From: Marchantia polymorpha subsp. ruderalis
Lineage: Eukaryota; Streptophyta; Marchantiopsida; Marchantiales; Marchantiaceae
DNA: 64,000 nucleotides
Assembly (NCBI GenBank): GCA_037833965.1
Contig: AP031352.1
Coordinates: 18,146,501-18,210,500, forward strand
Direction: 5' to 3'
Positions 24,216 through 48,392 of this stretch are shown here, one piece after another (the stretch's first letter is position 1; each line of letters starts with the position of its first letter). Below the pieces are notes generated by a model. The model saw nothing but the letters and a program-made list of their open reading frames with translations. It was not told the DNA's origin and did no database searches. A program made the translations under genes and the position numbers.

Positions 24216-24234
24216 GTCCCCGGCAGCGGCGCCA
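24216..24234 (-). other. Primer binding site, tRNA-Asp type
   Basis: On the minus strand TGGCGCCGCTGCCGGGGAC is complementary to the 3' end of plant tRNA-Asp (TGGCGCCGTTGCCGGGGA type) with one mismatch. It lies 22 bases past the 5' LTR end (24257), a longer gap than the usual few bases. tRNA-Asp-type sites are common in Athila-like elements. Confidence 0.85.
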
Positions 24235-24256
24235 AAAAGAAGTTGTCGGCTTCTTA

Positions 24257-27200
24257 TGTAATAACCCACTAAAGGCTAAAACTGCAATATAGTGGTAGAA
24301 AGGTCGAACCCACAGGGACAGAGGAACACACAGGGTACAAAGTGTCACGTTTAATAGACTATTGATGAGTTTGAATTCTCAGGCGACTGTCACTCCCAGA
24401 AATACTGCAAGTGTCCACTCGGAGCGCACTCGGAGGTCGCACAGTGCAGCGTAACACACACACACACACACACCTGAAACTACAGAAATACAACCCAGAG
24501 ATCCGTTAGGACCTCTACTTCAAGATTTCAGGGGAAAAGTCTCTCGCGAGCACACTCGGCAAAGCTGCGGGCAGTGACTTCCAACTCCGGCTTTTACAAC
24601 ACTTCCACTAGCTTGCTGCTAGTGTAGGAAACCCGGTTTGGACTGCCTACTTCGGATCGAAGTCACTCCTACGCGGTGAACAACACTCTCAACTCACAAA
24701 ACGCGCAGAGAACACAGGTCCGCACTGAAGGACTCACTGTGAAACATTCCAGTAACACAACAACAGTCTATTGAAGAGTTTTAATTCTCAGGCACTTGTC
24801 ATTCCCAGAAATACTACAGGGGTTACTATAATAACCCACTAAAGGCTAAAACTGCAATATAGTGGTAGAAAGGTCGAACCCACAGGGACAGAGGAACACA
24901 CAGGGTACAAAGTGTCACGTTTTAACAGACTATTGAAGAGTTTGAATTCTCAGGCAACTGTCACTCCCAGAAATACTGCAAGTGTCCACTCGGAGCGCAC
25001 TCGGAGGTCGCACAGTGCAGCGTAACACACACACACACACCTGAAACTACAGAAAACACAACCCAGAGATCCGTTAGGACCTCTACTTCAAGATTTTAGG
25101 GGGGAAGTCTCTCGCGAGCACACTCGGCAAAGCTGCGGGCAGTGACTTCCAACTCCGGCTTTTACAACACTTCCACTAGCTTGCTGCTAGTGTAGGAAAC
25201 CCGGGTTGGACTGCCTACTTCGGATCGAAGTCACTCCTACGCGGTGAACAACACTCTCAACTCACAAAACGCGTAGAGAACACAGGTCCGCACTGAAGGA
25301 CTCACTGTGAAACATTCCAGTAACACAACAACAGTCTATTGAAGAGTTTTAATTCTCAGGCACTTGTCATTCCCAGAAATACTACAGGGGTTACCCTCAA
25401 GGCACCTGCTGCAGCGTAACCTGAATTTACAACCAAGGCTTACACGAAGTAACAAAACTTCACTTTGGCATTCAGGGGAAAAATCCCAAAGGAGTACAAT
25501 CAGAAAGAAACACTCGAAGGTGTAGGGGCGAAACTGTTCAAGTATCTAACTAGTCACTGGCTCTAAGCATCGGCAGTCACCCGCAGGTGCAGATCCGAAC
25601 TACTCAAGTCTCTAACCAATGTACTAGCTCTGAACATTCGGCCGAAGGCCTTCAGCTACAAAATGCGGAACGCTAAGTTGTAACTCCTCGTGCGTGGTGA
25701 CAGAACTCAAGGACACAAACACGCAAAGGAAATGGGTTCCTGATCTATACTTCTGAGTTTGGGAAAGAACCCCAGGCAAAACGCCTGGAACTATTTTATA
25801 CCTTCTAAGTCCTACCTAGCACTACACTGCACTACCATGGTGCGAGCCGCAACAGAACCTACACCTGAGGAGTCGGCGGCTGCCTTCCCCTCTAACTTAC
25901 AACCTAAATCTAACCCTAACCCTAAATCTGAATCCTAAGCCTACTGTACAGAGCCGCCAGTGCCTTCCCACCCAAGATCTGAGGCGGAAAATTTGCAGGC
26001 AGGCGTGGCCGGCCGAGATCAACGGCCCCACAAAATTTCAGATCCATCCAACCGTCCATCGCAAAGATATGGGCCCCGCAAGATCTCTGAACCTAGGCCA
26101 AAATTCCTTCTCCAAAATCCGAGGACTGTGGGTTCCACGCGTCCTACACGCAAGCCGCCTACTCGCAGGCCGCCACTGCCACATCTGAACATTCTACATT
26201 CATGACCACCCGATCCTCGCCGGAGGAAATCTCCTTCCGCGCACCGCCGAATGCGTCCAACCGCCAAAGACGCACTTCCACACCTTGTCAATCTCTAACA
26301 GTCACCCCGACGCCCATAACTCACGGATCCCTGCTTCGTTTGCAACGTTCTTGCGCTCGTTGGAACGAGCGTCGCGAGCTCTTTCCAACGAGACCCTAAC
26401 CACCGCAAACCATTAAGAATTGAAAACACTATGTCAATTTTACCCTTCCGCCGAAGGCCTGCCTGTGCACAGGCCGCCTACTTGCAACCCGCCTGTGCAC
26501 AGGCCGTCCGCCTGTGCACAGGCGTCCGCGTCCGTCCGCGGCGTAAGCCGCCTCTCTAAGTGTTAACGCCGAAGGCCCCTCTAAATGTTAGCACCGAAGG
26601 CCCTCCATATCAGAAACTTCCGCCGCTTCTAACTCGGTGATGCCTCATCCGTTTCAAGAGATCTTGGTCTCGTTGGAACCAGCTCGTTGAGTTCTTTCCA
26701 ACGAGATCCGAATCAAGTCAAACCGCTAAGAATTGAGAAAGTTATGTCGGTTTTCCTCTTCCGCCGAAGGCGTTCGCCTATCCAAAGTCCGTCCGCGGCG
26801 ATGACCTGGCCGTCCGCTGCGCTGACCTGTCCGTCCGCGGCGCTGAGCTGGCGCAGAAGGCGCCGTACACTTTCTACCTCACAAGGCGCATTTCTAGGGC
26901 CCAAGGCGGATTTCCCGCCGACGCCAAAGCGCCTGTGCTCAGGCGAACGCCTGTGCGCAGGCGAACTTCCTTCGTCCGCGCATAGGACAAAACTTTCTTC
27001 GCCGGTGCGTAGGCGGAAAGCTGAGTATCTTGCGACCTTCATAACTCCCGGAATTCTCCTCCGTTCGTGGCGTTCTTGAGCTCGTTAGAATCAGCGCGTA
27101 GAGGTCTTTCCAACGAGACCCTAACCAAGTCGAGGCGTTGCGCATTGAGAAAGTTATGAGGGTTTCACTCTTCCGCCGAATGCACTCTCCCGTATCGCCG

Positions 27201-29741
27201 AAGGCGTTGACCGAAGGCGTCTACCGCCCAAGGCGCATCTTCCGGCGGTTCTTCCGCCGAAGGCGTACCGCCAAAGTCGCTCTACCGCCGAAGGCCCCCC
27301 CCATCAGTAACTTCCGACACTCATAACTCAGTGAACTCTCATCCGTTTCACAAGTTCTTGGTCTCGTTAGAACGAGCGTCGCGAGCTCTTTGCAACAAGA
27401 CCCGAAACAACTCAAGGCGTTACGAATTGAGAAAGTTATGAGTGATCAACCGCCGAAGGTGCTCGAAGCGGATCCTGCAGCATGAACCGCCCGTTCCGTC
27501 CCAAGCGTCCCACTGTGGCCTAAGCCCAAAACCCCTTGACTGTCCTCGATCCTCTTTTTACTCTGGTTTCGCGTACCGATTACTATTTACAGCTGCTGCC
27601 GCGGTACTTACTATTCAAAAATGTTTTAGTTCCGACAAAAAACAAAAAGTGGGTTACCACAGTTACCCTCAAGGCACCTGCTGCAGCGTAACCTGAATTT
27701 ACAACCAAGGCTTTCAAGAAGTAGCAAAACTTCACTTTGGCATTCAGGGGAAAAATCCCAAAGGAGTACAATCAGAAAGAAACACTCGAAGGGGTAGGGG
27801 CGAAACTGTTCAAGTATCTAACTAGTCACTGGCTCTGAGCATCGGCAGTCACCCGCAGGTGTAGATCCGAACTACTCATGTCTCTAACCAATGTACTAGC
27901 TCTGAACATTCGGCCGAAGACCTTCAGCTACAAAATGCGGAACGCTAAGTTGTAACTCCTCGTGCGTGGTGACAGAACTCAAGGACACAAACACGCAAAG
28001 GAAATGGGTTCCTAATCTGCACTTCTGATGGGAAAGAACCCCAGGCAAAACGCCTGGAACTATTTTATACCTTCTAAGTCCTAACTAGCACTACACTGCA
28101 CTACGCTACACGCCTGCACGGAACCACGCTACACTACACTCCGCGGAACCTGTACTACGTCTCCTGCGCGGCCGACTGCCGCGCACTAACTCCCTACCCT
28201 GCCAATCTTCCGCTCGACTGCGCAGTCCCAAACGCTGCAACGCCGCGGACACCTCCACTTCGAGGGCGGACATGGTATCCTGTGCCTTCGACAGAAAGGC
28301 ATCGAGCTTCTTCGCTACCTTCCGCCGACTCCTACTGTCGCCTGACAACAACCCGGCTGCGCGCAATTCAAACTCACGCAGTGTGAGTTTCTCCTGCGCC
28401 TTCACTTCCCAGTGGGCGTAGCCCTTGAGACAGTGGGCGACACGCCTCCGTCCGACACGACACGTCCAAGAATGGGACGTTCTCCGCCGCCCGGTCGAAG
28501 GTCATGGTCGGCTCTTGCTCGTGAAGAACGTCTCACTTGATGGCCACGCCGGCTGTACGCTGGAACGGTCTTCGCTCTCACGCGCGGCTTCACGCTCCGC
28601 CGTCGTCGATTAAACTCTCACGCTCGAATTGGCGGATTTGAACTCCGCGAGCATATTACCCCGCGGACATGGGGGCGTAGCGCCGAAGGCGAGTTTTCCG
28701 CCTTGCGCGGTACACTTGTTCGTACTGCCTTTCGGCCAATCCCCCTCTGCCTTGACGCGTGTGTCCGCATGTCGGACAAAAGTTCAACTCCTGCCTGTGC
28801 GCAGGCAGGAGCCTCGGCGGATGCTCCGCCGGCACGGAACTTCATCCTCCTGTGCACAGGCGATCGCCTGTGCGCAGGCGAATTCCGTGCGCGGCGTAGC
28901 GCTGGCGCGGAAGGCGTTGACCGTGGTCAGCCGTCTCCGTCCAGTCTGTCCGTTCCTTGTCTCTTCGTCGGCGCTTCCGCCGCCGCAACTCCGTCCGTCC
29001 AAGAGCGCATCCACCCGTCCCGCCCGTACCGATTTGATTTACTCTGGCGGCTCTTCCGCCGTACGCGGCGCTGCGCTGGCGCGGAAGGCGCCGTACACTT
29101 TCTACCTCACAAGGCGCATTTCTAGGGCCCAAGGCGGATTTTCCGCCGACGCCGAAGCGCCTGTGCACAGGCGAGCGCCTGTGCGTAGGCGGACTTCGCG
29201 CCTCCCCTAACCCTACTTCGCCTGTGCACAGGCGAACGCCTTCGTCCGCGCATAGGACAAAACTTGATTCCCCCTTCCGCGTAGGCGGAATTCGCGCCGG
29301 TGGCGAACTCTTTCCGCCGTAGGCGACCGCCTCCGTTTCTTCCAATAGTGATAACTCCCTAAGTCCTCATCCGTTCCAAGCGTTCTTGGACTCGTTGGAA
29401 TCAGTGCGTCGAGCTCTTTCCAACGGGACCCTAACTTGGTCAAGGCGCCCGAGGGTTGACCTAATTATGGAGGGTTTCCCTACAGCCGCGGACGCAACCT
29501 CCGAAGGCGGGTTTTGCGCCTTGCGTCGTAGGGGTCCTAACTGCAGAGCTCGCAGGGAGGGTGGTGCCTGTCCTTACTGCTGCACCCCAAATTCCAGATT
29601 CTACAAGATCCCTCGAGAATCCCCGCGATCTTCCGGATTCACTCCGTTTTGATGTACCGAAGGCTATTTACAATGCTGCCAGGGTACAGTTTTCCAAAAA
29701 TGTTTTAATTTCCTCAAAATTGCCAAAAGTGGGGTACCACA
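24257..29741 (-). repeat. 5' LTR of the gypsy element, interrupted by a solo LTR
   Basis: Minus-strand LTR from TGTGGTACCCC (29741) to TTATTACA (24257). Without the 2.8-kb subfamily B insertion it is about 2.65 kb, half the family length; its copy of the U3 ORF is largely missing and non-functional. Its outer flank carries AAGTT, matching the far end of the element. Its R/U5 part is close to identical to that of 8821, confirming the LTR pair. Confidence 0.85.
24827..27661 (-). mobile_element. Solo LTR of subfamily B inserted in the 5' LTR
   Basis: Complete 2835-bp LTR on the minus strand, from TGTGGTAACCCAC (27661) to TTATTATA (24827), flanked by the perfect 5-bp duplication GTTAC (24822-24826 and 27662-27666). 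No internal region remains, so it is a solo LTR left by LTR-LTR recombination. It has no long ORF. It carries four copies of a roughly 100-bp module (near 26345, 26660, 27070, 27350), several GCCTGTGCACAGGC palindromes near 26463-26525 and a telomere-like motif at 25903-25928. Confidence 0.88.
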
Positions 29742-32490: not shown

Positions 32491-35400
32491 GCTTCAGAAA
32501 GAAGGACTCACTGAGAAACATTCCAGTAACACTCCATAACAGTCTGTTGAAGAGTTTGAATTCTTAGGCACTTGTCATTCCCAGAAATACTATAGGGGTT
32601 ACCCTGAAGGCACCTGCTGCAGCGTAACCTGAATTTACAACCAAGGCTTACACGAAGTAGCAAAACTTCACTTTGGCATTAAGGGGAAAAATCTCGAAGG
32701 AGTACGATCAGAAACAACCACTCAAAGGTGTAAGGGGGAAAATGTTCAAGTATCTAACTCGTCACTGGCTCTGAGCATCCGCAATCACCCGTAGGTGTAG
32801 ATCCAAACTACTCAAGTCTCTAACCAATGTACTAGCTCTGAACATTCGGCCGAAGGCCTTCAGCTACACGATGCGGATCGCTAAGGTGTAGCTCCTATTG
32901 CGTGGTGACAGAACTAAGGACACAAACACGCAGAGAAAATGAGTTCCTAATCTGCACTTCCGAAATTGGAAAAGATCTCAAGGCAAGACGCCTTGAACTA
33001 CTTTATACCTTCTAAGTCCTAACTAACACTATACTGCACTACGCTACACGCCAGCACGGAACCACGCTACACTACACTCCGCGGAACCTGTGCTTCGCCT
33101 CCTGCGCGACGGACTGCCGCGCTCTAACTTCCTACCCTGCCAGTCCTCGGCTCGACTGCGCAGTCCCAATCGCCGCAACACCGCGGAAACCTCCGTCTCA
33201 AGGGTGGACATGGTGTCCCGCGCCTTCGATAGAAAAGAGTCCAGCTTCTTCGCTACTCGCCGCCGACTCCGACTGTCACCTGCCATCAACCCGGCTGCAC
33301 GAAGCTCTAACTCACGCAGTGTGAGTCTCTCCTGCGCCGCCACTTCCCAGTGGGCGTAGCCCTTGAGACAATGGGCGACTCGCCTCGCCATCTCTTCCTT
33401 CGTGCGATATGCCTCTCTCCTGCGATCGTCTTCAATTACTACTAACTGCGATTCGGCCTCCGCACGCTGTGCTCTCAATTCTCCGCACTCCGACTACAGC
33501 CTGCGAATTAATTCCTCATCCGCCTGTCGTGCGAGCTGACACTGTTCCAACAACCGCGTCTGTCGCACTAGCTCCTCTGACAGCACCTGATTCTGAGTCT
33601 TCTCATAAATCAGTGCTTCCGTGGCCTTCACCAGATCCTTGGTGAGCTCTTCCAGTCTCCCATTCTTCACCTTGTCGTAGTGGGTGTACGTTCTCCGAAT
33701 GAGATTGTACTGACCCCACAAGCATTCATGCTTCTCTTGAAGTTCCTTAAGTTCTCGGTCCACCCGAGCTAGCAGCTTGGTGGTGTGGACTTTAGTGCGA
33801 GTTCGCCTGCGCACTAATTCGACGTAGGATCCAGGCTGGCGAGGATCCGCGTACTTATCCATCTTGCGATCCAAGTACCTCAGCAGAGGTACTACCTGCT
33901 CACAGAGCGCCGCCGCCGGCGCATCAACTATTTCTTCCTCCTCCTCCTCCTCGGTGGATCCCGATCCCGACACTGATTCCGTGGATCCTCCTTCTTCATC
34001 ATCATCCGAAGGGAGGATTTCGGTCGCCATTGATTGCGTTCGCGACTGGCCTGAGTGGGGCTGCGAGTGGTCTGCGTGTTCTGCCGCCGATGGTGCTCCT
34101 GCAGCCTCGCTGCTCCCAAGTAAAATGTCCAAGGCGATGGGTGAATGCGGCCGTGTCGATCGTAACTCCCTTGCCGTCGGCGCCCACCGCCGAAGGTGAT
34201 CGCGCGGAATGTGTCTGCGCGGGGTGCAATTGTGCATCGCGCACGCAAATTTCATCCTACGGACAGACAATCCGCTCCTCCGTTAGGTCCTGCTCCCTCG
34301 ATCGGTCATGCGCGAGGGATGCTTCCGGCCTACGCGTTGGCGCAAATCCCGGCGCGTTATCCGCCGCAGGCGCAACGCCGAAGGCGTCTACCGCCAAAGG
34401 TGATAGAGCCGAAGGCCGCCCGCCCGATGTCCCTTGGCCCAAAGGCCCATCTTCCGGCGGATTCCCCGCCAAAGGTGCGGCCTCTACACGCTCCTTGCTT
34501 GTAACTTGTTGGCTCAAAGGCCCTGGCGCCGAACGCCACCTACATGCGGACGCAATCCGCGCGTAGGTGGTCGCTCCTCGTCCAGCCATTCGCACACCAT
34601 GTCTACGCACACGTAATTCCATCCCCACAGCAAGAACTCGAGTGACCTTGCAATCAGCCGTTCCTCAAAGGCACGCAACCCATTCTGCGAGAGCTTGAGT
34701 GGCACCATCCGCAGCCTCATCAATTTTGGCATTGCGTTCTTGAAATTGGTTCGCGCAACTCTCTCTCTGCTCTGCCCGAGCCTTTTGCTCGCGCTTCTGC
34801 CTCCTCTGCAAACTCTAATTTCTCTCAATTCCAACTGTAGCGCACGCAATTCTCTTTCAGCCACCGAGTAACTCTCCGCGCGGTGATGTCTAGAACGTCT
34901 CTCAGCTAGGAGGTGGACATGTGGTACCCCACTTTTGGCAATTTTGAGGAAATTAAAACATTTTTGGAAAACTGTACCCTGGCAGCATTGTAAATAGCCT
35001 TCGGTACATCAAAACAGAGTGAATCCGGAAGATCGCGGGGATTCTCGAGGGATCTTGTAGAATCTGGGATTTGGGGTGCCGCAGCAAGCACAGGCACCAC
35101 CCTCCCTGCGAGCTCCGCAGTTAGGATCTCTACGGCGCAAGGCGCAAAACCCGCCTTCGGAGGTTGCGGCCGCGGCTGTAGGGAAACCCCCGTAATTAGG
35201 TAAACCCTCGGGCGCCTTGACCAAGTTAGGGTCCGGTTGGAAAGAGCTCGACGCGCTGATTCTAACGAGCCCAAGAGCGCTTGGAACGGACGAGGACTTA
35301 GGGAGTTATCGCTACTGGAAGAAACGGAGGCGGTCGCCTACGGCGGAAGGAGTTCGCCACCGGCGCGAATTCCGCCTACGCGGAAGGGGGATTCAAGTTT

Positions 35401-36165
35401 TGTCCTATGCGCGGACGAAGGCGTTCGCCTGTGCACAGGCGAAGTAGGGTTAGGGAAGGCGCGAAGTCCGCCTACGCACAGGCGTTCGCCTGTGCACAGG
35501 CACTTCGGCGTCGGCGGGAAATCCGCCTTGGGCCCTAGAAATGCGCCTTGTGAGGTAGAAAGTGTACGGCGCCTTCCGCGCCAGCGCAGCGCAGCGTACG
35601 TCGGAAGAGCCGCCAGAGTAATCCAATAGGTACGGACCGTGCGGACGGCACGGGTGGATGCGCTCTTGGACGGACGGAGTTGCGGCGGCGGAAGCGCCGA
35701 CGGAGAGACAAGGAACGGACAGACTGGACGGAGACGGCTGACCACGGTCAACGCCTTCCGCGCCAGCGCAGCGCCGCGGACGGAGTTCGCCTGCGCACAG
35801 GCGAACGCCTGTGCACAGGAGGATGTTCAAGTTCCGCGCCGGCGGAGAATCCGCCGAGGCCCCTGCCTGCACACAGGCAGGAGTTGAATTTTTGTCCGAC
35901 ATGCGGACACACGCGTCAAGGCAGAAGGAGATTGGCCGAGGGGCGGTACGAACAAGTGTACCGCGCAAGGCGGAAAACTCGCCTTCGGCGCTACGCCCCC
36001 ATGTCCGCAGGGTGACACGCTCGCGGAGTTCAAATCCGCCAATTCGAGCGTGAGAGTTTAATCGACGACGGCGGAGCGTGAAGCCGCGCGTGAGAGCGAA
36101 GACCGTTCCAGCGTACAGCCGGCGCGGCCATCAAGTGAGACGTTCTTCACGACCAAGAGACGACC

Positions 36166-39100
36166 ATGACCTTCGACCGGGCGGCGGAGAGCGTCCCATT
36201 CTTGAATTCGCGATTCCAATCTCTTGTGCGCGCCGCGCGCATCCATCTGCTGGCTGCGGACCATTCTCGTCGTCGTCACACAGGAGATTTCTTGTTGATT
36301 GAGGGAGAAGTGAGTGCGCGTGATTTGGAATTGAGAGCGATTAGAGTTTGCCGAGAGAGAAAGAAACGCGGACAGTGTGGAAGTAGAATGAGCGGGCGAG
36401 CGAACCCCAGGAACGCAATGACGAGACCGAGCAGATTGCGGATGGTGCCACTTCGCCTGCCGCAGAACGGGCTGCGCGCTTTCGAGGAGCGCTTAATAGC
36501 AAGAAAGCTCGATTTCTTGCTATGGGGATGGAATTACATCTGCGCGAATATGGTGCGCGAGTGGCTAGAGCCACAGGGACCACCATCGCGCGGATTGCGT
36601 CCGCATGTTGACCGGTGGACAGTCCAAGATTGGGCGCAGGCGTTGGGAAGATGTGCTGGCATGCCAGGGCATCTCCTTTTCGACAGCGAGAGCATCAAGG
36701 TGACCAAGCAAGAAGAGGCGCAATTTGTGGAGCTGTTCAAGACTGGGAGGTCAACCAAGAATGGGTACAGGACCCGTGATTACAAGGATCGATTTCGCCG
36801 GACTTTGTCCGCGGCGCTGATGCAATTACTGCAGCCGCACCGCGCCTGCTACATCACATTGTGGCAGGTCTCTTTTGTGGAGTGCGTCATCGAGGGAACT
36901 CCAATTCACTGGGCGAGCATCCTGCACAGGGTGATGCGACAGCACGCGTTTGAGGAGAAAGGGGGAACTCTAAACCATCTTTCTCCTTTCCTCATCAATT
37001 TTTATCGACAGCGGAATTGTTTGACAGCGGCGGAGCTTGAACATTTTCCGCCATTATCCATCGACCATCCCGGGAAGTATGTGCGGGAGAACGAGGTCGA
37101 CACTGATGCGGAGGAGTCCCCGACTTCTACCCCATCGAGACGGAGAGACGAAGGGAGACACACCCCTACAGCGCGAGTGCCGCGGAAGCGGCGATGGAGG
37201 GAAGAGGCCGAAGAGGAGCAGCATCAAGAACTCTCTGCTCCCATTCGACCGCGGCCGCTGTGCGAGCCATACAACCGGCCGAAGCAGAAGGCACGCAGAC
37301 TGGTGTTGCCAGCTGACAGTGCAGACACGGCGACGATTGCGACGGAGATAGGAAGTGCGTCGCCAGAGAGGCGAGAGGAAGCGCGGACGACCGCAGGAGC
37401 AGCGGGCCACGCTGCAACCTCGTCGGGAGAGAGGCCGCCTACGGGCCAAGGGCCTCCGGAGTTACCACGTGCGATGCGGACAGATGTTCCGTTTGCGCAC
37501 AGGCGAACCTCCGCGGACGGACGAGCCTCCGCGGACCGGCGAACACAAGTGGACGTGGATCTACGCTTACGCGTGGGAAGGAGCAGTCCGCCTGTGCACA
37601 GGCGCTCGCCTGTGCACAGGTCGCCTGTGCACAGGTCACCTGTGCACAGAACACCTCCACACGTGCCGCCTGTGCACAGGCAAGAATCACCCCCGTTCCA
37701 ACGTAGGAAGGGGAAGGAGCCGGCGGAAGAACCGCCTACGAGACACCGGCCCTCGGGGCCAGACCCTCCGGCGCACCACGCGCCGCAATTCGCGCCTTCG
37801 GCGCCAGGGCCTTCGAGCCGAGGAGATACGAGCAGAGAGCGTGCGGAGGCCGCACCATCGGCGGGAAGTCCGCCGATAGATGCGCCTTCGGCGGTAGGGC
37901 CTATAGGCCAAGGAACATCGGGCGTGCGGCCCCCGGCCATGTCGCCTTCGGCGATAGATGTCCGCGGCGCTACGCCTGCGACGGACAAGGCGCCGGCAAA
38001 TGCGCCTGCGCACGGGCCGGGCACAGCCCCCACGGACCGATCGAGGGAGCAGCAGACGGAGGAGCGGAGTGACTGTCCGCGGGATGAAATCTCGATACGC
38101 GATGCGCAATCCAACCCCGCGCAGCCACCCTCCGCTCAATCGCCTTCGGCGACGGACGACAGAGACAGAGAGAATGCGGTAGGCAATCAACCAGCGAGCG
38201 ACGGGGATGCCGCTCGGATACACTCGCCTTCCGCCTTAGACATTTTGGCGACGAGCAGCGAGGCTGCAGCCGTGCCTTCGCAGGCAGCACACGTCGAGGA
38301 TGTGCAGCCCCACTCGGGGCAGTCGCCGACGCAATCAATGGCGACTGAAATTCTCCACTCGGATGATGACGACGGAGGCTCCACGGAAGAAATGTCAGGA
38401 GCAGAAGACACCGAGGAGGAGGAGGAGGAAATTGTTGGAGCGCCGGCGGCGGCGCTCTCTGAGCAGGTGATTCCGTTGCTGCGGTACTTGGATCGCAAGG
38501 TCGATAAATACGCCGACCCACTCCAGCCGGGATCTTACATCGAGTTAGTGCGCAGGCGGACTCGCACTAAAGTCCACACCAGCAAGCTATTAGCTAGAGT
38601 GGACCAGGAGTTGAGGGACTTGAAGGAGAAGCATGAGTGCTTGTGGGGACAGTACAAGCTTAATCAGAAATTCTACAAGCACTCCGAGAAGATGAAGGAT
38701 GAGAAACTGGGCGAGCTCACCAAGGAGCAGGTGAAGGTCAAGGAAGCACTCAACTCTGAGCAGGCCCAGAATCGGATTTTGTCAGAGGAGCTCGTGCGAC
38801 AGACGCGGTTGTTGGAACAGTGTCAGCTCGCACGGCAGGCGGATGAAGAATTAATCCGCAGGTTACAGTCAGAGTGTGGCGAATTGAGGGCGCAACGTGC
38901 TGAAGCCGAATCGCAATTAGTGACCATTGAAGAGGATCGCAGGAAGGAGGCGGATCGCACGCAGGTGGAGACGGCGAGGCGAGTCGCCCACTGTCTCAAG
39001 GGCTACGCCCACTGGGAAGTGAAGGCGCAGGAGAAACTCACACTGCGTGAGTTTGAATTGCGCGCAGCCGGGTTGTTGTCAGGCGACAGTAGGAGTCGGC

Positions 39101-39318
39101 GGAAGGTAGCGAAGAAGCTCGAGGCCTTTCTGTCGAAGGCACAGGATACCATGTCTGCCCTCGAGGGGGAGGTGTCCGCGGCGTTGCAGCGGTTGGGACT
39201 GCGTAGTCGAGCGGAAGAGTGGCAGGGTAGGGAGTTAGTGCGCGGCAGTCGGCCGCGCAGGAGACGTAGTACAGGTTCCGCGGAGTGTAGTGTAGCGTGG
39301 TTCCGTGCAGGCGTGTAG
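36166..39318 (+). CDS. LTR (U3)-encoded 1050-residue protein of unknown function
   Basis: Open for 1050 codons inside the solo LTR. Residues 1-75 are basic. Residues 85-310 form a conserved, helical, Trp-rich domain (RMVPLRLPQNGLRAFEERLI, LLWGWNYICANMVREWL, YKDRFRRTL, NHLSPFLINFYRQ). Its layout faintly recalls the 'putative plant transposon protein' domain of Athila-type extra ORFs; that is inference. Residues 320-740 are Pro/Ser/Arg-rich and probably disordered, with SPVHR repeats near 475-508. An acidic run (TEEEEEEIVG) lies near 750, a long coiled coil at about 790-1000, and a basic C-terminus (RPRRRRS) follows. No protease, polymerase, envelope signal peptide or membrane helix is seen, so an env-like role is unlikely. 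A structural, RNA-binding or silencing-suppressor role is possible but unproven. Confidence 0.8.
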   Translation: MTFDRAAESVPFLNSRFQSLVRAARIHLLAADHSRRRHTGDFLLIEGEVSARDLELRAIRVCRERKKRGQCGSRMSGRANPRNAMTRPSRLRMVPLRLPQNGLRAFEERLIARKLDFLLWGWNYICANMVREWLEPQGPPSRGLRPHVDRWTVQDWAQALGRCAGMPGHLLFDSESIKVTKQEEAQFVELFKTGRSTKNGYRTRDYKDRFRRTLSAALMQLLQPHRACYITLWQVSFVECVIEGTPIHWASILHRVMRQHAFEEKGGTLNHLSPFLINFYRQRNCLTAAELEHFPPLSIDHPGKYVRENEVDTDAEESPTSTPSRRRDEGRHTPTARVPRKRRWREEAEEEQHQELSAPIRPRPLCEPYNRPKQKARRLVLPADSADTATIATEIGSASPERREEARTTAGAAGHAATSSGERPPTGQGPPELPRAMRTDVPFAHRRTSADGRASADRRTQVDVDLRLRVGRSSPPVHRRSPVHRSPVHRSPVHRTPPHVPPVHRQESPPFQRRKGKEPAEEPPTRHRPSGPDPPAHHAPQFAPSAPGPSSRGDTSRERAEAAPSAGSPPIDAPSAVGPIGQGTSGVRPPAMSPSAIDVRGATPATDKAPANAPAHGPGTAPTDRSREQQTEERSDCPRDEISIRDAQSNPAQPPSAQSPSATDDRDRENAVGNQPASDGDAARIHSPSALDILATSSEAAAVPSQAAHVEDVQPHSGQSPTQSMATEILHSDDDDGGSTEEMSGAEDTEEEEEEIVGAPAAALSEQVIPLLRYLDRKVDKYADPLQPGSYIELVRRRTRTKVHTSKLLARVDQELRDLKEKHECLWGQYKLNQKFYKHSEKMKDEKLGELTKEQVKVKEALNSEQAQNRILSEELVRQTRLLEQCQLARQADEELIRRLQSECGELRAQRAEAESQLVTIEEDRRKEADRTQVETARRVAHCLKGYAHWEVKAQEKLTLREFELRAAGLLSGDSRSRRKVAKKLEAFLSKAQDTMSALEGEVSAALQRLGLRSRAEEWQGRELVRGSRPRRRRSTGSAECSVAWFRAGV

Positions 39319-39354
39319 CGTAGTGCAGAGTAGTGCTAGTTAGGATTTAGAAGG

Positions 39355-39383
39355 TATAAAATAGTTCCAGGCGTTTTGCCTGG
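39355..39383 (+). promoter_or_regulatory. LTR TATA box with adjoining hairpin
   Basis: TATAAAATAG at 39355-39364, followed by CCAGGC-GTTTT-GCCTGG (39367-39383), a 6-bp stem. Both are kept in every LTR copy, with TATAAAG in older ones. This is the likely core promoter for the genomic RNA, and it lies downstream of the ORF, which places the ORF in U3. The transcription start, and so the U3/R border, should be about 30 bases further on. Confidence 0.7.
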
Positions 39384-39768
39384 GGTTCTTTCCCATCAGA
39401 AGTGCAGATCAGGAACCCATTTCCTTTGCGTGTTTGTGTCCTTGAGTTCTGTCACCACGCACGAGGAGTTACAACTTAGCGTTCCGCATTTTGTAGCTGA
39501 AGGCCTTCGGCCGAATGTTCAGAGCTAGTACATTGGTTAGAGACTTGAGTAGTTCGGATCTGCACCTGCGGGTGACTGCCGATGCTCAGAGCCAGTGACT
39601 AGTTAGATACTTGAACAGTTTCGCCCCTACACCTTCGAGTGTTCCTTTCTGATTGTACTCCTTTGGGATTTTTCCCCTGAATGCCAGAGTGAAGTTTTGC
39701 TACTTCGTGTAAGCCTTGGTTGTAAATTCAGGTTACGCTGCAGCAGGTGCCTTGAGGGTAACCCCTGT

Positions 39769-40214
39769 AGTATTTCTGGGAATGACAAGTGCCTGAGAAT
39801 TCAAACTCTTCAATAGACTGTTGTTGTGTTACTGGAATGTTTCACAGTGAGTCCTTCAGTGCGGACCTGCGTTCTCTGCGCGTTTTGTGAGTTGAGAGTG
39901 TTGTTCACCGCGTATGAGTGACTTCGATCCGAAGTAGGCAGTCCAAACCGGGTTTCCTACGCTAGCAGCAAGCTAGTGGAAGCGTTGGAAGTCACTACCC
40001 GCAGCTTCGCTTAGTGTACTCTTGAGAGACTTCCCCCCTGAAATCTTGAGTAGAGGTCCTAACGGATCTCTGGGTTGTGTTTCTGTAGTTTCAGGTGTGT
40101 GTGTGTGTGTGTGTACGCTGCACTGTGCGACCTCCGAGTGCGCTCCGAGTGGACACTTGCAGTATTTCTGGGAGTGACAGTCGCCTGAGAATTCAAACTC
40201 CTCAATAGTCTGTT
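39769..40214 (+). repeat. 54-bp direct repeat within R/U5
   Basis: Two copies (39769-39822 and 40161-40214) sharing AGTATTTCTGGGA, CCTGAGAATTCAAACTC and TCAATAG, about 340 bases apart. The same pair is present in all LTR copies of both subfamilies, so it is an old family feature, possibly from an internal duplication of the untranslated leader. Confidence 0.75.
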
Positions 40215-41624
40215 AAAACGTGACACTTTGTACCCTGTGTGTTCCTCTGTCCCTGTGGGTTCGACCTTTCTACCACTATATTGCAGTTTTAGCCTTTAGT
40301 GGGTTATTACAGGACGCGCGCAGCTCGCACTTGAAATCGCAAATTCAAGAATGAGGCGTCCTCTATCTCCTCGTAGGAGGTCATGGTCGGCTCTTGGTCG
40401 TGAAGGTCGAATCACTTGATGGCCGCGTCGGCTCCGCGGTATAACGGCCTTCTCTCTCACGCGCGGCTTCACGCTCCGCCGACTTCACTCACACGCTCGA
40501 ATTGGTAATTTGAACTCCGCCAGTGTACCACGCCGCGGCCATGGGCGCGCAGCGCCGAAGGCAGATTTCTCGCCGGCGCGCTACACTCCTTCGTACTTCA
40601 ATTTGGCTAGTCCCGCTCCGCCGAAGGCGTTTGTACGCGCATAGGACAAAAGTCGAACTCCCTTCTGCGTAGGCGGAATTCCCGGCGGAGTTTCCGCCGG
40701 AGCAGAACTTCATCTGCCTGTGCGTAGGCGCTCGCCTACGCGTAGGAGAATTCCGTCCGCACACAAGACGTTCGTCCGCGCAGGTCCCTCGCTGCAGGCG
40801 CAGCGCCGAAGGCGGCTGTGCCAAAGGCGTTAACCGCGGTCAACGGACTCCGTCCAGTCTGTCCATTTCTCTCGCCTATCCGTCGGCGCTCTTGTCTCCG
40901 TAATCCCGACCGGCCGAAGGTGCACTCGTCCGTTCCGTTCGTACGGTCCGTACGGATTTTACTACTTCGTTGGGTCCTCACCCATCCGTGCTGCGCTGGC
41001 GCCGAAGGCGCCGTACAAGTTCCAACCCCGAAGGCCGATTTCTAGGGCCGAAGGCGGACTTCCCGCCGACGCCGAAGCGCCTATGCGTAGGCGATTCCTG
41101 TTTGCCTATGCGTAGGTGCAAATCCTCCCCGCCTACGCGTAGGCGGCATTCTCGGCGGACACCCCGCCGACGTCAAGCCCTATTTTGCCTATGCGTAGGA
41201 TAATAGGCGAACTTCCTTCGCCTATGCGTAGGCAAAGATCTTTGTATCTTTCGACCGTCACAACTTCCTGAATCCTCATCCGTTCAAGGCGTTCTTGGGC
41301 TCGTTAGAATCAGCGCGTCAAGCTCTTTCTTACGAAACCCTAACCAAGTCAAGGCGTTCGAGAATTGATCAGATTCTGAGGGATTTCTCTAGCGCCGAAG
41401 GCGGCTTAGGCGCCTTGCGCCGAAGGGGTACTCCTTCAGAGCCCGTCGTTTAGGGCAGCGTCTGTCTCTGACGTTGCGCCCAACTCCTGGATTCTTCGAG
41501 ATTCTCCGAGATCATCCAGTTTCACTCTATTTTGATGCACTGATGGCTATTAACACTGCTACCGCGGTACAGTTTTTCGGAAATGTTTTAAATTCCGCAA
41601 AAACACCAAAAGTGGGGTACCACA

Positions 41625-42190: not shown

Positions 42191-42694
42191 GTGTGGTACC
42201 CCACTTTTGGCAATTTTGAGGAAATTAAAACATTTTTGGAAAACTGTACCCTTGCAGCATTGTAAATAGCCTTCGGTACATCAAAACGGAGTGAATCCGG
42301 AAGATCGCGGGGATTCTCGAGGGATCCTGTAGAATCTGGGATTTGGGGTGCAGCAGTAAGGACAGGCACCACCCTCCCTGCGAGCTCTGCAGTTAGGACC
42401 CCTACGACGCAAGGCGCAAAACCCGCCTTCGGAGGTTGCGTCCGCGGCTGTAGGGAAACCCTCCATAATTAGGTTGACCCTCGGGCGCCTTGATCCAGTT
42501 AGGGTCCCGTTGGAAAGAGCTCGACGCACTGATTCCAACGAGTCCAAGAACGCTTGGAACGGATGAGGACTTAGGGAGTTATCACTATTGGAAGAAACGG
42601 AGGCGGTCGCCTACGGCGGAAAGAGTTCGCCACCGGCGCGAATTCCGCCTACGCGGAAGGGGGAAACAAGTTTTGTCCTATGCGCGGACGAAGG
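42191..42694 (+). mobile_element. LTR-A 5' fragment (first ~500 bp)
   Basis: Begins with TGTGGTACCCCACTTTTGGC and is almost identical to the start of the intact LTR (34920-35420). It stops abruptly in the sequence GACGAAGGC and continues as an older LTR type. The close match shows it is a young piece fused to an old one, by insertion plus recombination or by gene conversion. Confidence 0.72.
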
Positions 42695-45600
42695 CTAAAA
42701 TCTGCGCCGGCGGAAACTCCGCCGAAGATTCCGCCTACGCAGAAGGGAGTTCAAACTTTTTCCTATGCGCGGACGAACGCCTTCGGCGGAGCGGGACTAG
42801 CCAAGCTGACGTACGACGGAGTGTAGCGCGTCGGCGAGAAATTTGCCTTCGGCGCTGCGCGAGCATGGCCGCGGCGTGATACGCTAGCGGAGTTCAAATT
42901 ACCAATTCGAGCGTGTGAGTGAAGTCGGCGTCGGCGGAGCGTGAAGCCGCGCGTGAAAGAGAAGGCCGTTATACTGCGGAGCCGGCGCGGCCATCAAGTG
43001 ATTCGACCTTCACGACCGAGAGCCGACCATGACCTCTTGCGAGCGGAGAGAGGACGCCCCATTCTTGAATTTGCGATTTCAATTTCTGGTGCGAGCTGCG
43101 CGCGTCCACCTTCTAGCTGAGAGACGTTCTATACATCACCGCGCGGAGAGTTACTCGGTGGCTGAGAGAGAATTGAGTGCGCGACATTTGGAATTGAGAA
43201 AAATTAGAGTTTGCAGAGGAGGCAGAAGCGCGAGCAAGAGGCTCGGGCAAAGCAGAGAGAGAGAGTTGCGCAAACCAATTTCAGGAACGCAATGTCAAAA
43301 TCGATGAGGCTGCGGATGGTGCCACTCAAGCTCCCGCAGAATGGGTTGCGTGCCTTTGAGGAACGGCTGATTGCAAGGAAACTCGAGTTCTTGCTGTGGG
43401 GATGGAATTACGTGTGCGTAGATATGGTGCGCGAATGGCTGGACGAGGAGCAACCACCTACGCGCGGATTACGTCCGCACGTAGATAGGTGGACTGTCCG
43501 CGATTGGGGACAGGCATTGGGGAGGTGCGCAAGTGACGACGGGTACCTCCTGTTCGAGAGTGAGAGCGTCAAGGTAACCAAGCAGGACGAAGCCTCCTTC
43601 GTGGAATTGTTCAAGCAGGAGAGGTCTTCCAAGAACGGGTACAGGACCCGCGACTACAAAGATCGTTTCCGCAGGACCCTAGCGATGGCGCTGTTGCAAT
43701 TGTTGCAGCCGCACCGCACTACGTACATCACGTTGTGGCAGGTGTCATTCGTGGAGCTCATCTTGGCCGGAGCTCCAATTCACTGGTCGCGTATCCTGCA
43801 TAGGGTGATGCGACAGCATGCGTTTGAGGAACGGGGAGGAACTCTCAATCACCTCTCCCCCTTCTTGATAAATTTTTATCGGAAGATGAATTGTTTAACC
43901 GCGGCGGAGCGTGCTCGATTTCCGCCATTGTCTGTCGACCATTTCCGGAGGTATGTGCGGGATAACGAGGTAGACACCGACGCGGAGAATTCGCCAACTT
44001 CCACTCCACCGATTCAACAGGATGCGGGGAGAGACACACCCACAGCGAGAGTGCCGCGGAAGCGAAGATGGAGAGAGGAACCGAAGAAAGAGCAACGTCG
44101 AGAACCCGCTGCTCTCACACGGAAGCCGCCACTGCACGAAGTTTGCAGCCGGCCGAAGCAGAACGCGCGTAGGCTTTTGTTACCAACCAACAGCGTGGAA
44201 ACGGCGACGATCGCCATAGAGAAGGGAAGTTCGTCCCCGGAGAAAGATGGGACTACACGACGGCCGAAGGGGCGGTAGACCACACTACGCCTTCGGCGGA
44301 AGAGAGACCGCCTTCGGGTCAGGAGTCACCACGTACGGCGCGGACGAGTGTGCCGCCTACGCATAGGCAGAGATTTAGGGTTTAGGTAGGCAGAGAAAGT
44401 TTGCCTACGCATAGGCGGCCGCCTACGCGTAGGCAAGACTCACCCCCGGTACAACGTAGGAAGGGGAAGGAGCCGGCGGAAGATCCGCCTTCGGGTCAAG
44501 GGCCTTCGGGGCAAGATCCTCCGGTGGACAGAGCGCCGGGATTTGCGCCTTCGGCGCCAGGGCCTTCAGGCCAACGAGTTACAAGTAGACAGCGTGCGGA
44601 AGCAGCGCCTTCAGCGGGGAATCCGCCGGAAGATGCGCCTTCGGCGGAAGGGCCTTCGGGCCAAGGTACATCGGGCGGGCGGCCTTCGGCTCTATCACCT
44701 TTGGCGGTAGACGCCTTAGGCGCTGCGCCTGCGGCGGATAATGCGCCGGGAATTGTGCCTACGCGTAGGCCGGACGCATCCCTCGCGCAAGACCGATTGA
44801 GGGAGCAGGACCTAACGGAGGAGCGGATTGTCTGTCCGCAAGATGAAATTCGCGTGCGCGATGCACAATTGCACCCCGCGCAGACACATTCCGCTCGAAA
44901 GCGCGGCGGACGCCTTCGGCGAAGGAGTGACGATCGACACACGACAGGCGGATGATGGGGATGTGGCACGGCCGCATTCACCCACCGCCTTGGACATTTT
45001 AGCAGGGAGCAGCGAAGCTGCAGGAGCGCCATCGGCGACAGAACCCGTAGATCCCACGCAGCCCCACTCGGGCCAGTCGCCAACGCAATCAATGGCGACC
45101 GAAATCCTCCCTTCGGATGATGACGAAGGAGGATCCACGGAATCAGTGTCGGGATCGGGAGACACCGAGGAGGAGGAGGAAGAAATCGTTGGTGCGCCGA
45201 CGGCGGCGCTCTGTGAGCAGGTAGTACCTCTGCTGAGGTACTTGGATCGCAAGATCGATAAGTACGCGGATCCTCGCCAGCCTGGATCCTACGTCGAGTT
45301 AGTGCGCAGGCGAACTCGCACTAAAGTCCACACCAGCAAGCTGCTAGCTCGGGTGGACCGGGAACTTAAGGAGCTGCGGGAGAAGCATGAATGCTTGTGG
45401 GGTCAGTACAATCTCTTTCGGAAGACGTACACCCACTACGACAAGGTGAAGAATGGGAGACTGGAAGAGCTCACCAAGGATCTGGTGAAGGTAACTAAAG
45501 CGCTGATTTCTGAGAAGACTCAGAATCAGGTTTTGTCAGAGGAGCTCGTGCAACAGACGCGGTTGTTGGAGCAGTGTCAGCTCGCACAACAGGCGGATGA

Positions 45601-46641
45601 GGACTTAATCCGCAGGCTGCAGTCGGAGTGCGGAGAATTGAGAGCACAGCGTGCGGAGGCCGAATCGCAGTTGGTAGTAATTGAAGACGATCGCAGGCGA
45701 GAGGCAGATCGCACGAAGGAAGAGATGGCGAGGCGAGTCGCCCACTGTCTCAAGGGCTACGCCCACTAGGAAGTGGCGGCGCAGGAGAAACTCACACTAC
45801 GTGAGTTAGAGCTTCGTGCAGCCGGGTTGTTGGCAGGTGACAGTCGGAGTCGGCGGCGGGTAGCGAAGAAGCTGGATTCTTTTCTATCGAAGGCGCGGGA
45901 CACCATGTCCACCCTTGAGACGGAGGTTTCCGCGGTGCTGCGGCGTTTGGGACTGCGAAGTCGAGCTGAAGACTGGCAGGGTAGGGAGTTAGAGCGCGGC
46001 AGTCCGTCACGCAGGAGGCGAAGCACAGGTTCCGCGGAGTGTAGTGTAGCGTGGTTCCGTGCCGGCGTGTAGTGTTAGTTAGTTAGGACTTAGAAGGTAT
46101 AAAGTAGTTCAAGGCGTCTTGCCTTGAGATTTTTCCAGTTTCGGAAGTGCAGATCAGGAACTCATTTTCTCTGCGTGTTTGTGTCCTTAGTTCTGTCACC
46201 ACGCAAGAGGAGCTACAACTTGGCGTTCCGCATTTTGTAGTTGAAGGCCTTCGGCCGAATGTTCAGAGCTAGTACATTGGTTAGAGACTTGAGTAGTTCG
46301 GATCTACACCTGCGGGTGATTGCCGATGCTCAGAGCCAGTGACGAGTTAGATACTTGAATAGTTTCGCCCTTACACTTTCGAGTGACTGTTCCTGATTGT
46401 ACTCCTTCGGGATTTTTCCCCTGAATGCCAAGTGAAGTTTTGCTACTTCGTGTAAGCCTTGGTTGTAAATTCAGGTTACGCTGCAGCAGGTGCCTTCAGG
46501 GTAACCCCTGTAGTATTTCTGGGAATGACAAGTGCCTAAGAATTCAAACTCTTCAATAGACTGTTACGGTGTGTTACTGGAATGTTTCTCAGTGAGTCCT
46601 TCCGTGCGGACCTGTGTTCTCTGCGCGTTTTGTGAGTTGAG
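42695..46641 (+). mobile_element. Older LTR-A relative with U3 ORF and R/U5
   Basis: Plus-strand LTR with the U3 ORF spread over 43029-46072, TATAAAG near 46099 and R/U5 up to an inversion junction at 46641-46644. The ORF is broken in several places, yet its helical domain (43290-43990) is well conserved at protein level against the intact copy, with many silent differences. This makes it the most useful diverged comparison in the window. Confidence 0.78.
43029..46072 (+). pseudogene. U3-encoded ORF, diverged copy (broken)
   Basis: Same domain order as 36166-39318: start MTSCERREDAPFL, helical domain with RLRMVPLKLPQNGLRAFEER and HLSPFLINFYRKMNCLTAAE, then a Pro/Arg-rich middle in which GCCTACGCGTAGGC palindromes stand where the intact copy has GCCTGTGCACAGGC. 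An acidic patch, a coiled coil and the end GSAECSVAWFRAGV follow. Broken in several places. Confidence 0.75.
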
Positions 46642-48392
46642 AGTACAATCAGGAACAATCACTTGAAAGTGTAAGGGCGAAACTATTCAAGTAGCTACTC
46701 GTCACTAGCTCTAAGCATCGGACATCGCCCGCGGACGTAGATTCGAACTACTCAAGTCTCTAACCAATGTATCAGCTCTGAACATTCGGCCGAAGGCCTT
46801 CAGCTACACAATGCGGACCGCTAAGGTGTAGCTCCTCGTGCGTGTTGACAAAACTAAGGACACAAACACGCAAAGAAAAATGAGTTCCTGATCTGCACTT
46901 CTGATGTTGCGAAAGATCCCAAGGCAAGACGCCTTGAACTACTTTATACCTTCTAAGTCCTAACTAGCACTACACTGCACTACGCCATGGTGCGAGCCGC
47001 AACAGATCCTACACCTGAGGAGTCGGCGGATGCCTTCCCCTCTAACTTACAACCTAAATCTAACCCTAACCCTAAATATGAAACCTAAGCCTACTGTACA
47101 GAGCCGCCAGCGTCTTTACATCCAAGATCTGAGGCTGAAAATTTGCAGGCATGCGTGGCCGGCTGACACCAACGGCCCTACCAAATTTCAGATCCATCCG
47201 ACCGTCCATCGCAAAGATATCGGCCCCGCAAGATCTTTGAACCTAGGCCAAAATTCCTTCTCCAAAATCCGAGGTCCGGGGACCCACATGCCCCTATGCG
47301 CAGGCCTCCTACTTGCAACTCCTTGGGCCGAAGGCCTATCTATCTGTTATCGCCGAAGGCCTCTCTCCTAACCATGACAGCCGCTTTCTACGCTCATAAC
47401 TCAGTGACGCCTTATCCGTTTGAAAAGTTCTTGGTCTCGTTGGAACGAGCGTTGCGAGCTCTTTCCAACAAAACCCTAACTAAGTCAAGGCGTTGCCAAT
47501 TGAGAAAGTTATAAGGGATTCACTCTTCCGCCGAATGCACTCTCCCGCATCGCCGAAGGCATTGACCCGAAGGCATTGACCCGAAGGCGTCTGTCGCCGA
47601 AGGCGTACATCTAGGGCCGAAGGCAGATATTCCGCCGATGGCGAAGTGTCTACGCGCAGGCGAATTCTTTCCGCCGAAGGCAGATTTCCCAGCGGACTTC
47701 CCGCCGACCACGAACTCCTTCCGCCTATCCGTAGGCGCTCTCCTTTGCATCTTTCGACAGTCACAACTCCCTGTGTCCTCATCCGTTCCAGGCGTTCTTG
47801 CGCTCGTTAGAACGAGCGTGTTGAGTTCTTTCCAACAAGACCCTAATCAAGTCAAGGTGTTGCAAATTGAGAAAGTTATGAGGGATTCACTCTTCCGCCG
47901 AATGCACTCTCCCACATCGCCGAAGGCGTTGACCCGAAGGCGTCTACCGCCAAAGGCGCATCTTCCGGCGGTTCTTCCGCCGAAGGCGTACCGCCAAAGT
48001 CGCTCTACCGTCGAAGGCCCCCCATCAGTAACTTCCGACACTCATAACTCAGTGACCTCTTCAGTAACTTCCGACACTCATAAGTTCTTGGGCTCGTTAG
48101 AACCAGCGCGTCGAGCTCTTTTCAACAAGACCCAAAGCAACTCAAAGCGTTACGAATTGAGAAACTTTATGAGTGATCTACCGCCGAAGGTGCTCGAAGC
48201 GGATCCTACAGCATGAACCGCCCGTTCCGTCCCAAGCGTCCCACTGTGGCCTAAGCCCAAAACCCCTTGACTGTCCTCGATCCTCTTTTTTAACTAGTTT
48301 CGCGTACCAATTACTATTTACAGCTCCTACCGCGGTACTTACTATTCAAAAATGTTTTAGTTCCGACGAAAAACAAAAAGTGGGTTATCATA
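46642..48392 (-). mobile_element. LTR of subfamily B, fragment
   Basis: Minus-strand LTR starting near 48392 (TATGATAACCCAC) and running to 46642, where it meets the plus-strand LTR tail-to-tail at a four-base overlap GAGT. It has the subfamily B modules, the telomere-like motif at 47052-47077 and the TATA region, but lacks the last part of U5. Broken relic. Confidence 0.75.

What the first reader, a model, noticed from the sequence alone, without database searches (positions are those of the whole stretch)
34920..40311. A 5.4-kb plant LTR that carries a 1050-codon ORF inside U3
The unit starts and ends with LTR termini, is flanked by a 5-bp duplication (one mismatch), and interrupts an older ORF that resumes on the other side, so it is one solo LTR. 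The ORF lies between the LTR start and the TATA box, hence in U3. In the full element at 8821-29741 the polypurine tract directly follows integrase and the same LTR follows, so the ORF is at the 3' end of the genomic RNA and is duplicated in both LTRs. The best-known parallel is sag in the mouse mammary tumour virus LTR; I know of no well-described plant case of this size.
Basis: partly seen in the sequence, partly recalled or inferred. Interest (0 to 1): 0.92.

Follow-up and report, generated by a model that had tools for sequence, protein, structure and literature searches.

The report
Retrotransposon gene inside its LTR
A very abundant jumping element of the liverwort Marchantia carries an extra, evolutionarily conserved gene of about 1050 codons inside its long terminal repeats, upstream of its own promoter, an arrangement best known from a mouse retrovirus and not found described for plants in our searches.

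Summary
34920-40311 is a solo LTR of a Ty3/gypsy element of Marchantia polymorpha: TG...CA ends, GGACA/GGACG duplication, inserted in an older related copy. A 1050-codon ORF lies between LTR start and the only TATAWA box, 36 bp past its stop codon. In all seven LTR-internal-LTR units fetched, pol ends 40 bp before the 3' LTR, the polypurine tract abuts it, and the ORF region lies in the LTRs (whole in 12 of 13 LTR loci; open in 7 of 13; open in both LTRs of 3 of 7 units). It is a real gene: dN/dS 0.14-0.32 outside a fast linker and the first 70 codons, like gag-protease; third-position excess inside the ORF only. The order persists in a relative 46-52% identical. No convincing Pfam match; all 38 named homologs are Marchantia. 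Predicted: N-terminal region, basic stretches, variable linker, long C-terminal helix, no membrane segment. Corrections: the window's own element has lost most of the ORF from its 5' LTR, and a related LTR type lacks it altogether. Most likely an accessory protein made from a separate U3 transcript; promoter, expression and function are inferred. A new variant of the extra-ORF kind.

The parts
34920..40311 (+). solo LTR, ORF-bearing (L) type, 5392 bp
   Evidence: TG...CA ends and flanking duplication; 97-99% identical to LTRs of fetched genomic elements
34915..34919 (.). target-site duplication, left copy GGACA
40312..40316 (.). target-site duplication, right copy GGACG (one mismatch)
34920..36165 (+). 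1.25-kb U3 leader before the ORF; six ATGs, no TATAWA, possible site of a separate promoter
   Evidence: promoter role inferred
36166..39318 (+). LTR ORF, 1050 codons, ATG to TAG
   Evidence: purifying selection
36412..37197 (+). conserved N-terminal region (codons 83-344), no known family; model unusable
37198..38439 (+). fast-evolving Pro/Arg/Ser-rich linker with indels, includes PVHR repeats
38536..39081 (+). long single predicted helix (codons 791-972), coiled-coil-like
   Evidence: mean pLDDT of the 292-residue model 77.8, pTM 0.31
39355..39364 (+). TATA box TATAAAATAG, 36 bp beyond the ORF stop codon; a TATAAARTAG box follows the ORF in all 7 window copies compared and TATAAAGTAG in L067, at roughly 25-45 bp
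39367..39383 (+). inverted repeat CCAGGC/GCCTGG just after TATA; reads CAAGGC/GCCTTG in diverged copies
39384..40311 (+). presumed R-U5, about 0.93 kb
   Evidence: position after TATA; boundary inferred, not mapped
32501..34918 (-). older related copy interrupted by the insertion (ORF codons 26-148, 545-663, 682-1050 matched)
40331..41624 (-). other side of the interrupted older copy (LTR positions 1-1300, with gaps, by DNA similarity)
8821..29741 (-). element with AACTT flanks; 5' LTR 29741-24257 rearranged and ORF-depleted, internal 24256-18458, 3' LTR 18457-13057, extra partial LTR 13056-8821
21336..24170 (-). gag-CCHC-protease ORF of that element, ending in TAG followed by CAATTA
18498..21335 (-). 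RT-RNaseH-integrase region of that element (one internal stop)
42192..46644 (+). diverged ORF-bearing LTR with the same order (LTR start, leader, ORF, TATA, R-U5)
5715..7464 (+). ORF-less (S-type) LTR resembling the L type at the LTR start and from the ORF stop codon onward
24829..27661 (-). ORF-less (S-type) LTR, flanks GTAAC

Best explanation
Shown: this is the LTR of an abundant Ty3/gypsy retrotransposon of Marchantia polymorpha (LTR 5.4 kb, internal 5.8 kb, LTR 5.4 kb) with a conserved protein gene inside the LTR, upstream of its TATA box; gag-protease and RT-RNaseH-integrase fill the internal region, separated by a UAG in a type I readthrough context. Inferred from position: the genomic RNA starts after the TATA box that follows the ORF, so each genomic RNA carries the ORF once, at its 3' end between PPT and R, and reverse transcription copies it into both LTRs. 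Inferred: because a scanning ribosome would first meet gag-pol, the protein is made from a separate mRNA, most likely started in the 1.25-kb U3 leader and ended at the poly(A) site of the same LTR (less likely a spliced genomic RNA), so that even a solo LTR stays a complete gene. Inferred with least support: the protein is a nuclear, coiled-coil accessory factor that helps expression of the element, for example against silencing, and acts in trans also for the ORF-less S-type derivatives.
For: Paired LTRs with the ORF and fixed internal order in fetched units; perfect 5-bp duplications in 4 of 5 testable elements; 660 exact PPT|LTR junctions genome-wide, 0 for the reversed pattern; constant 2471-bp RT-to-LTR distance in 31 of 40; LTR-ORF dN/dS 0.14-0.32 among young copies and 0.16-0.32 over seven N- and C-terminal segments of diverged copies, against 0.09-0.32 for gag-protease; third-position excess in the ORF (for example 16/20/62 by codon position, leader 19/19/18); TATA after the ORF also in diverged copies; basic stretches, no membrane segment, long C-terminal helix; S-type element with the same PBS and PPT but without gag-pol and ORF.
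Against: No transcript, cap-site or protein data were available. The leader has no TATAWA and six ATGs. The frame is open in only 7 of 13 fetched LTR loci. The linker (0.6-0.8) and two short segments within codons 1-70 (0.5-0.6) are little constrained. With CpG-type changes left out, the third-position excess nearly vanishes in one of 15 comparisons (L009, 12/7/13). Nuclear role and anti-silencing have no direct evidence; the N-terminal model is unusable and a heptad test on the C-terminal part was not significant against shuffles.
Confidence: 0.72

Rival explanations
1. Same anatomy, but the ORF is translated from a spliced genomic RNA: a donor near the 5' end of the transcript joins an acceptor just before the ORF in the 3' LTR, as for sag and nef. 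Solo LTRs would then be silent for it.
For: Position at the 3' end of the inferred genomic RNA; donor-like GTRAG sites exist in R-U5 at LTR positions 4790, 4928, 4968.
Against: Only one acceptor-like site passed the simple filter in the leader, at LTR position 201, far from the ORF; no cDNA data.
Confidence: 0.25
2. The ORF is a passenger: open by inheritance from a recent burst, without function.
For: The fetched copies are young (LTR pair differences 0.0002-0.0136 in six comparisons); the frame is not open in 6 of 13 LTR loci.
Against: dN/dS well below 1 in young and old comparisons and close to gag-protease; 3-base periodicity in the ORF and not in leader or R-U5; short indels in the ORF 16 of 20 multiples of three against 23 of 72 in R-U5, leaving out w42192 (many are shared between copies); ORF kept at 46-52% identity in the L067 relative.
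Confidence: 0.05
3. The ORF encodes an Env-like or membrane protein of a plant retrovirus-like element.
For: Sense ORFs downstream of pol in plant elements are often called env-like (PMC7264820).
Against: No 19-residue window above 1.6 in hydropathy, maximum 1.14; it lies beyond the PPT, not before it.
Confidence: 0.02
4. The conserved ORF acts mainly as DNA: its repeats serve as U3 enhancer sites and coding is secondary.
For: The palindrome CCTGTGCACAGG occurs 3 times in the leader and 4 times in the ORF linker of this LTR; 23 in the window, 0 in shuffles.
Against: Constraint is strongest in the N- and C-terminal protein parts, where the palindrome is absent in this LTR, and weakest in the linker.
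Confidence: 0.08

Closest known systems
MMTV sag (superantigen gene in the mouse mammary tumour virus LTR; recalled)
   Same: Coding sequence lies in U3, so it is at the 3' end of the genomic RNA and doubled in the provirus.
   Different: Sag is a membrane glycoprotein of about 320 residues (recalled) in a vertebrate virus; this is a 1050-residue protein with no membrane segment, in a plant Ty3/gypsy element, with no sequence relation found.
CRM group A centromeric retrotransposons (PMC3059260, figure legend and two other passages seen)
   Same: A plant element whose coding region enters the 3' LTR (CR motif).
   Different: There the polyprotein coding region runs into the LTR; here a separate, complete gene lies wholly inside the LTR.
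Additional ORFs of plant LTR retrotransposons: Grande gene23, Retand, Ogre, Athila, SIRE (PMC7264820 parts 1-2 of 3 read; PMC6317226 passages)
   Same: Extra conserved ORF besides gag-pol, function unknown, in Grande nuclear.
   Different: Those described there lie in the internal region, mostly between pol and the 3' LTR; this one is in the LTR.
HIV/SIV nef (recalled)
   Same: Accessory gene overlapping the 3' U3.
   Different: Only partly in the LTR, small, spliced, unrelated.

Membership tests
Ty3/gypsy (Metaviridae) LTR retrotransposon | gag - protease - RT - RNaseH - integrase order | tested here: met
   Pfam scan of the two internal ORFs; best solved relative of pol is Ty3 Gag-Pol
Ty3/gypsy (Metaviridae) LTR retrotransposon | Paired LTRs with TG..CA ends, PBS, PPT, 5-bp target duplication | tested here: met
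   duplication perfect in 4 of 5 testable elements, no match in the L012/L014 element, 3' end of the L009/L011 element not found; PBS-like stretch 22 nt after the LTR, tRNA-Asp assignment recalled only
Chromovirus | chromodomain at the end of integrase | tested here: not met
   no chromodomain up to E 0.1 in the Pfam scan of the pol ORF
Tat/Ogre/Retand | second (archaeal-type) RNase H | tested here: inconclusive
   only RT_RNaseH-type matches; no dedicated aRH profile was used and no RT tree was built
sag-like gene in U3 | complete ORF between LTR start and the promoter of the genomic RNA | tested here: met
   ORF ends 36 bp before the only TATAWA match; cap site not mapped
sag-like gene in U3 | membrane-anchored superantigen | tested here: not met
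   no membrane segment, no Pfam match above cut-off
Env-like aORF between pol and 3' LTR | location before the PPT and transmembrane segments | tested here: not met
CRM group A | polyprotein frame continues into the 3' LTR | tested here: not met
   pol ends in TGA 37 bp before the LTR
Transposase_32 / plant mobile domain / Transposase_28 aORF proteins | match to the family profile | tested here: not met
   no such match among 7 and 30 homologs; PF20167 search of the genome empty but its controls were empty too

The most novel reading that the evidence does not exclude
Each LTR is a self-contained gene: promoter in the U3 leader, ORF, and poly(A) site in R. LTR-LTR recombination, which normally leaves a dead solo LTR, here leaves a working copy of a trans-acting element gene, so the family builds up a large dispersed gene set for an accessory (possibly anti-silencing) protein that serves full elements and ORF-less, gag-pol-less derivatives alike.
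Probability: 0.25. Interest if true: 0.87.

Novelty: new variant of a known kind. Interest (0 to 1): 0.68.

Why it matters
The plant review seen (PMC7264820) places extra retrotransposon ORFs in the internal region; a whole constrained gene in U3 of a plant element is a different solution, with a testable consequence: the gene survives conversion to a solo LTR. It sits in a genetic model plant, in a family with 1602 exact LTR starts, so expression and function can be tested directly, and annotations that treat LTRs as non-coding will miss or misname it (named homologs are deposited as hypothetical proteins).

Tried and rejected
Rejected: that the unit is not an LTR (ends, duplications and pairs); that the ORF lies before the PPT in the copies tested; that the ORF is chance or unconstrained; Env-like nature. 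Led nowhere: Pfam and NCBIfam scans of the ORF (the window ORF has one hit below cut-off at E 0.019; single relatives give Extensin_1 at 0.00019 and, in 2 of 7, CENP-K at best 0.0018, which I take for low complexity and coiled coil), solved structures, N-terminal structure model (pLDDT 38, so no fold search was made), Rfam, heptad periodicity test, PF20167 in the genome. The C-terminal model is a long single helix, so a fold search would say little and was not made. L067 gave no clear LTR start, duplication or gag-pol in the 8 kb held, so it shows the order ORF-TATA-R-U5 only. No RT tree was built, so the lineage inside Ty3/gypsy is open. Homolog searches scored only the 7991 and 7993 candidates sharing most words, so 'Marchantia only' is limited to these. 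Papers: PMC7264820 parts 1 and 2 of 3 read; PMC6317226, PMC9985172, PMC5784723, PMC3059260, PMC5382211, PMC7302162 passages; PMC11963269 term counts only (all zero); others as search listings. Searches for an ORF in an LTR: (20 of 28 papers listed; 0; 0; 13 of 13), and on extra ORFs (15 of 108 listed); no listed title or abstract start describes a plant case. The library lacks most subscription papers.
Full report
What was checked. The window is part of a 241-Mb, 9-contig genome; of 47 homologs of the ORF found, 38 are named and all of these are Marchantia polymorpha, 9 are unnamed (only the 7993 candidates sharing most words were scored). The unit 34920-40311 starts TGTGGTACC, ends TTATTACA, and is flanked by GGACA and GGACG. 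The ORF runs 36166-39318. Its length is far beyond chance: 1059 codons stop to stop against at most 436 in 500 dinucleotide shuffles. The insertion splits an older minus-strand relative: ORF codons 26-148, 545-663 and 682-1050 match at 34918-33047, and the LTR start side lies at 41624-40331 by DNA similarity.

Full elements. A search with the first 301 bases gave 41 matches from 40 scored of 1249 candidates, several in pairs about 11.19 kb apart. Seven LTR-internal-LTR units (six loci, one a tandem array of three LTRs) were fetched in pieces. Their internal regions hold a 943-codon frame (gag, CCHC knuckle, aspartic protease) and a 946-codon frame (RT, RNase H, integrase), both full in five of seven; in the two units of the tandem array the second frame is cut to 679 codons. 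Pol's closest solved relative is Ty3. The LTR follows the PPT GAGGAGGGGGGCA directly in all seven, and 37 bp lie between the pol stop codon and the LTR. A PBS-like TGGCGCCGCTGCCGGGGA lies 22 nt after the 5' LTR (its likeness to tRNA-Asp is recalled). Five-base duplications are perfect in 4 of 5 testable elements; one (L012/L014) shows none.

Where the ORF is. Of 13 fetched LTR loci, 12 align over the whole ORF region (three of them with a short deletion) and one (L011) only over LTR positions 1-1653; the frame is open over at least 1043 codons in 7 of 13, and in both LTRs of 3 of 7 units. Genome-wide there are 660 exact PPT|LTR junctions, 1602 exact LTR starts, 743 exact LTR|PBS junctions (the last include S-type elements) and 373 exact ORF-start motifs; the reversed control patterns gave 0 each time. 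On contig C3, 31 of 40 RT hits tested have the PPT|LTR junction at exactly 2471 bp, so nothing as large as the ORF fits before it; the other 9 have no exact junction. With strict or capped marker lists, which give lower bounds, an ORF marker was seen at the expected place in 25 of 66 PPT|LTR junctions on C3 (ORF start about 1.23 kb into the LTR), in 11 of 47 LTR|PBS junctions, and in both LTRs of 5 of 21 elements with both junctions; 9 of 15 ORF hits on the first 7.1 Mb of C3 have an exact LTR start 1449-1481 bp upstream. Of 144 scored protein hits (of 8207 candidates), 108 have an open frame of 1000-1080 codons, a biased set because the best hits are scored first.

Is it U3? The only TATAWA match in the LTR is TATAAAATAG at LTR position 4436, 36 bp beyond the stop codon. 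Such a box follows the ORF within roughly 25-45 bp in all 7 window copies compared and in the diverged locus L067. So the ORF fills U3 between a 1.25-kb leader and the promoter. The cap site itself is not mapped. An inverted repeat after the box changes on both arms between subfamilies (CCAGGC/GCCTGG to CAAGGC/GCCTTG).

Selection. Between the window ORF and two near-full window copies dN/dS is 0.23 and 0.22; against diverged copies it is 0.16-0.32 over seven N- and C-terminal segments, 0.6-0.8 in two linker segments and 0.5-0.6 in two short segments within codons 1-70. With L009 as reference, young copies give 0.14-0.32; gag-protease gives 0.14-0.32 in young pairs and 0.09-0.17 in two old fragments; pol 0.04-0.29. 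Substitutions fall 16/20/62 by codon position inside the ORF but 19/19/18 in the leader of the same LTR pair. In 14 of 15 comparisons third-position changes are at least twice the first- and the second-position ones (the diverged w42192: 183/177/335); with CpG-type changes left out the third position is still the highest in 15 of 15, but in L009 only barely (12/7/13). The comparisons share one reference and related copies, so they are not independent. Short indels inside the ORF are multiples of three in 16 of 20 cases (w42192 left out: it has 5 of 10), in R-U5 in 23 of 72; many are shared between copies. So the protein is selected about as strongly as gag-protease and less than pol.

What the protein is. 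No Pfam match above cut-off, no NCBIfam or solved-structure match; single relatives give weak Extensin_1 and CENP-K hits. It has a conserved region (codons 83-344), basic stretches such as PRKRRW and RPKQKARR, a Pro/Arg/Ser-rich variable linker, an acidic run and a long C-terminal helix (codons 791-972; AlphaFold mean pLDDT 77.8, pTM 0.31, above 90 over about two thirds of the helix). The N-terminal model is unusable (pLDDT 38). There is no membrane segment. A simple heptad test was not significant, so 'coiled coil' rests on the helix prediction and on sequence character.

ORF-less relatives. The window holds LTRs of a second type (S: 5715-7464 and 27661-24829) that resemble the L type at the LTR start and from the ORF's stop codon on, but have no ORF. 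A small S element (L068) has the same PBS leader and PPT, about half a kilobase between the LTRs with only a faint gag remnant, and no gag-pol; its LTRs are 3.7 kb apart start to start, too short for the ORF. The S LTR search scored 40 of 2857 candidates. Such elements need proteins in trans, so the LTR ORF is not needed in cis.

Mechanism. Because U3 of the 3' LTR is the template for both LTRs, the gene is carried once per genomic RNA and appears twice per provirus; this follows from established LTR retrotransposon replication. Translation from the genomic RNA is unlikely with gag-pol in front. A separate transcript from the U3 leader to the poly(A) site in R is favoured, with splicing as the rival; neither is shown. 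A nuclear accessory or anti-silencing role is a guess from charge, coiled coil and the needs of a young high-copy family, by analogy with the nuclear Grande protein mentioned in PMC7264820.

Comparison with what is known. PMC7264820 (parts 1 and 2 of 3 read) and passages of PMC6317226 place extra plant ORFs in the internal region. CRM group A is the nearest plant precedent met, with the polyprotein coding region entering the 3' LTR (figure legend of PMC3059260). Sag and nef are recalled. Searches of the open-access library listed no plant LTR with a whole gene in U3, judged from titles and abstract starts; subscription papers are mostly not covered. PMC9985172 mentions 222 full-length LTR elements in M. 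polymorpha without describing this one in the passages seen.

Verdict. New variant of a known kind, interest 0.68.

Noticed in passing
window 21336-21338 (-) and L010, L013, L016, L018, L021, L024, L027: Gag-protease and pol frames are in phase and separated by UAG followed by CAA UUA, an exact type I (CARYYA) readthrough context as defined in PMC5382211; 8 of 8 copies looked at. Two paper searches (15 of 36 and 15 of 119 papers listed) showed no title on a plant retrotransposon with it.
   Followed up: partly
window 35428-37680 and other LTR copies: Palindrome CCTGTGCACAGG: 7 copies in this LTR, 3 in the U3 leader and 4 inside the ORF linker where it encodes PVHR repeats; 23 in the window, all inside LTR copies (three in an S-type LTR), 0 in shuffles.
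   Followed up: partly
window 5715-7464, 24829-27661; L068: ORF-less S-type LTRs and a small non-autonomous element sharing R-U5, PBS leader and PPT with the ORF-bearing element.
   Followed up: partly
G000 C4:14582743-14638695, C6:1080819-1108595, C3:22624098-22646493: Tandem arrays LTR-internal-LTR-internal-LTR with about 11.19-kb period, up to six LTR ORF hits in a row.
   Followed up: no
window 39367-39383: Inverted repeat next to the TATA box with changes on both arms between subfamilies, possibly a structured 5' end of the transcript.
   Followed up: no
window 54001-55000: A 1-kb stretch of only 19% G+C between neighbours of 41% and 48%.
   Followed up: no
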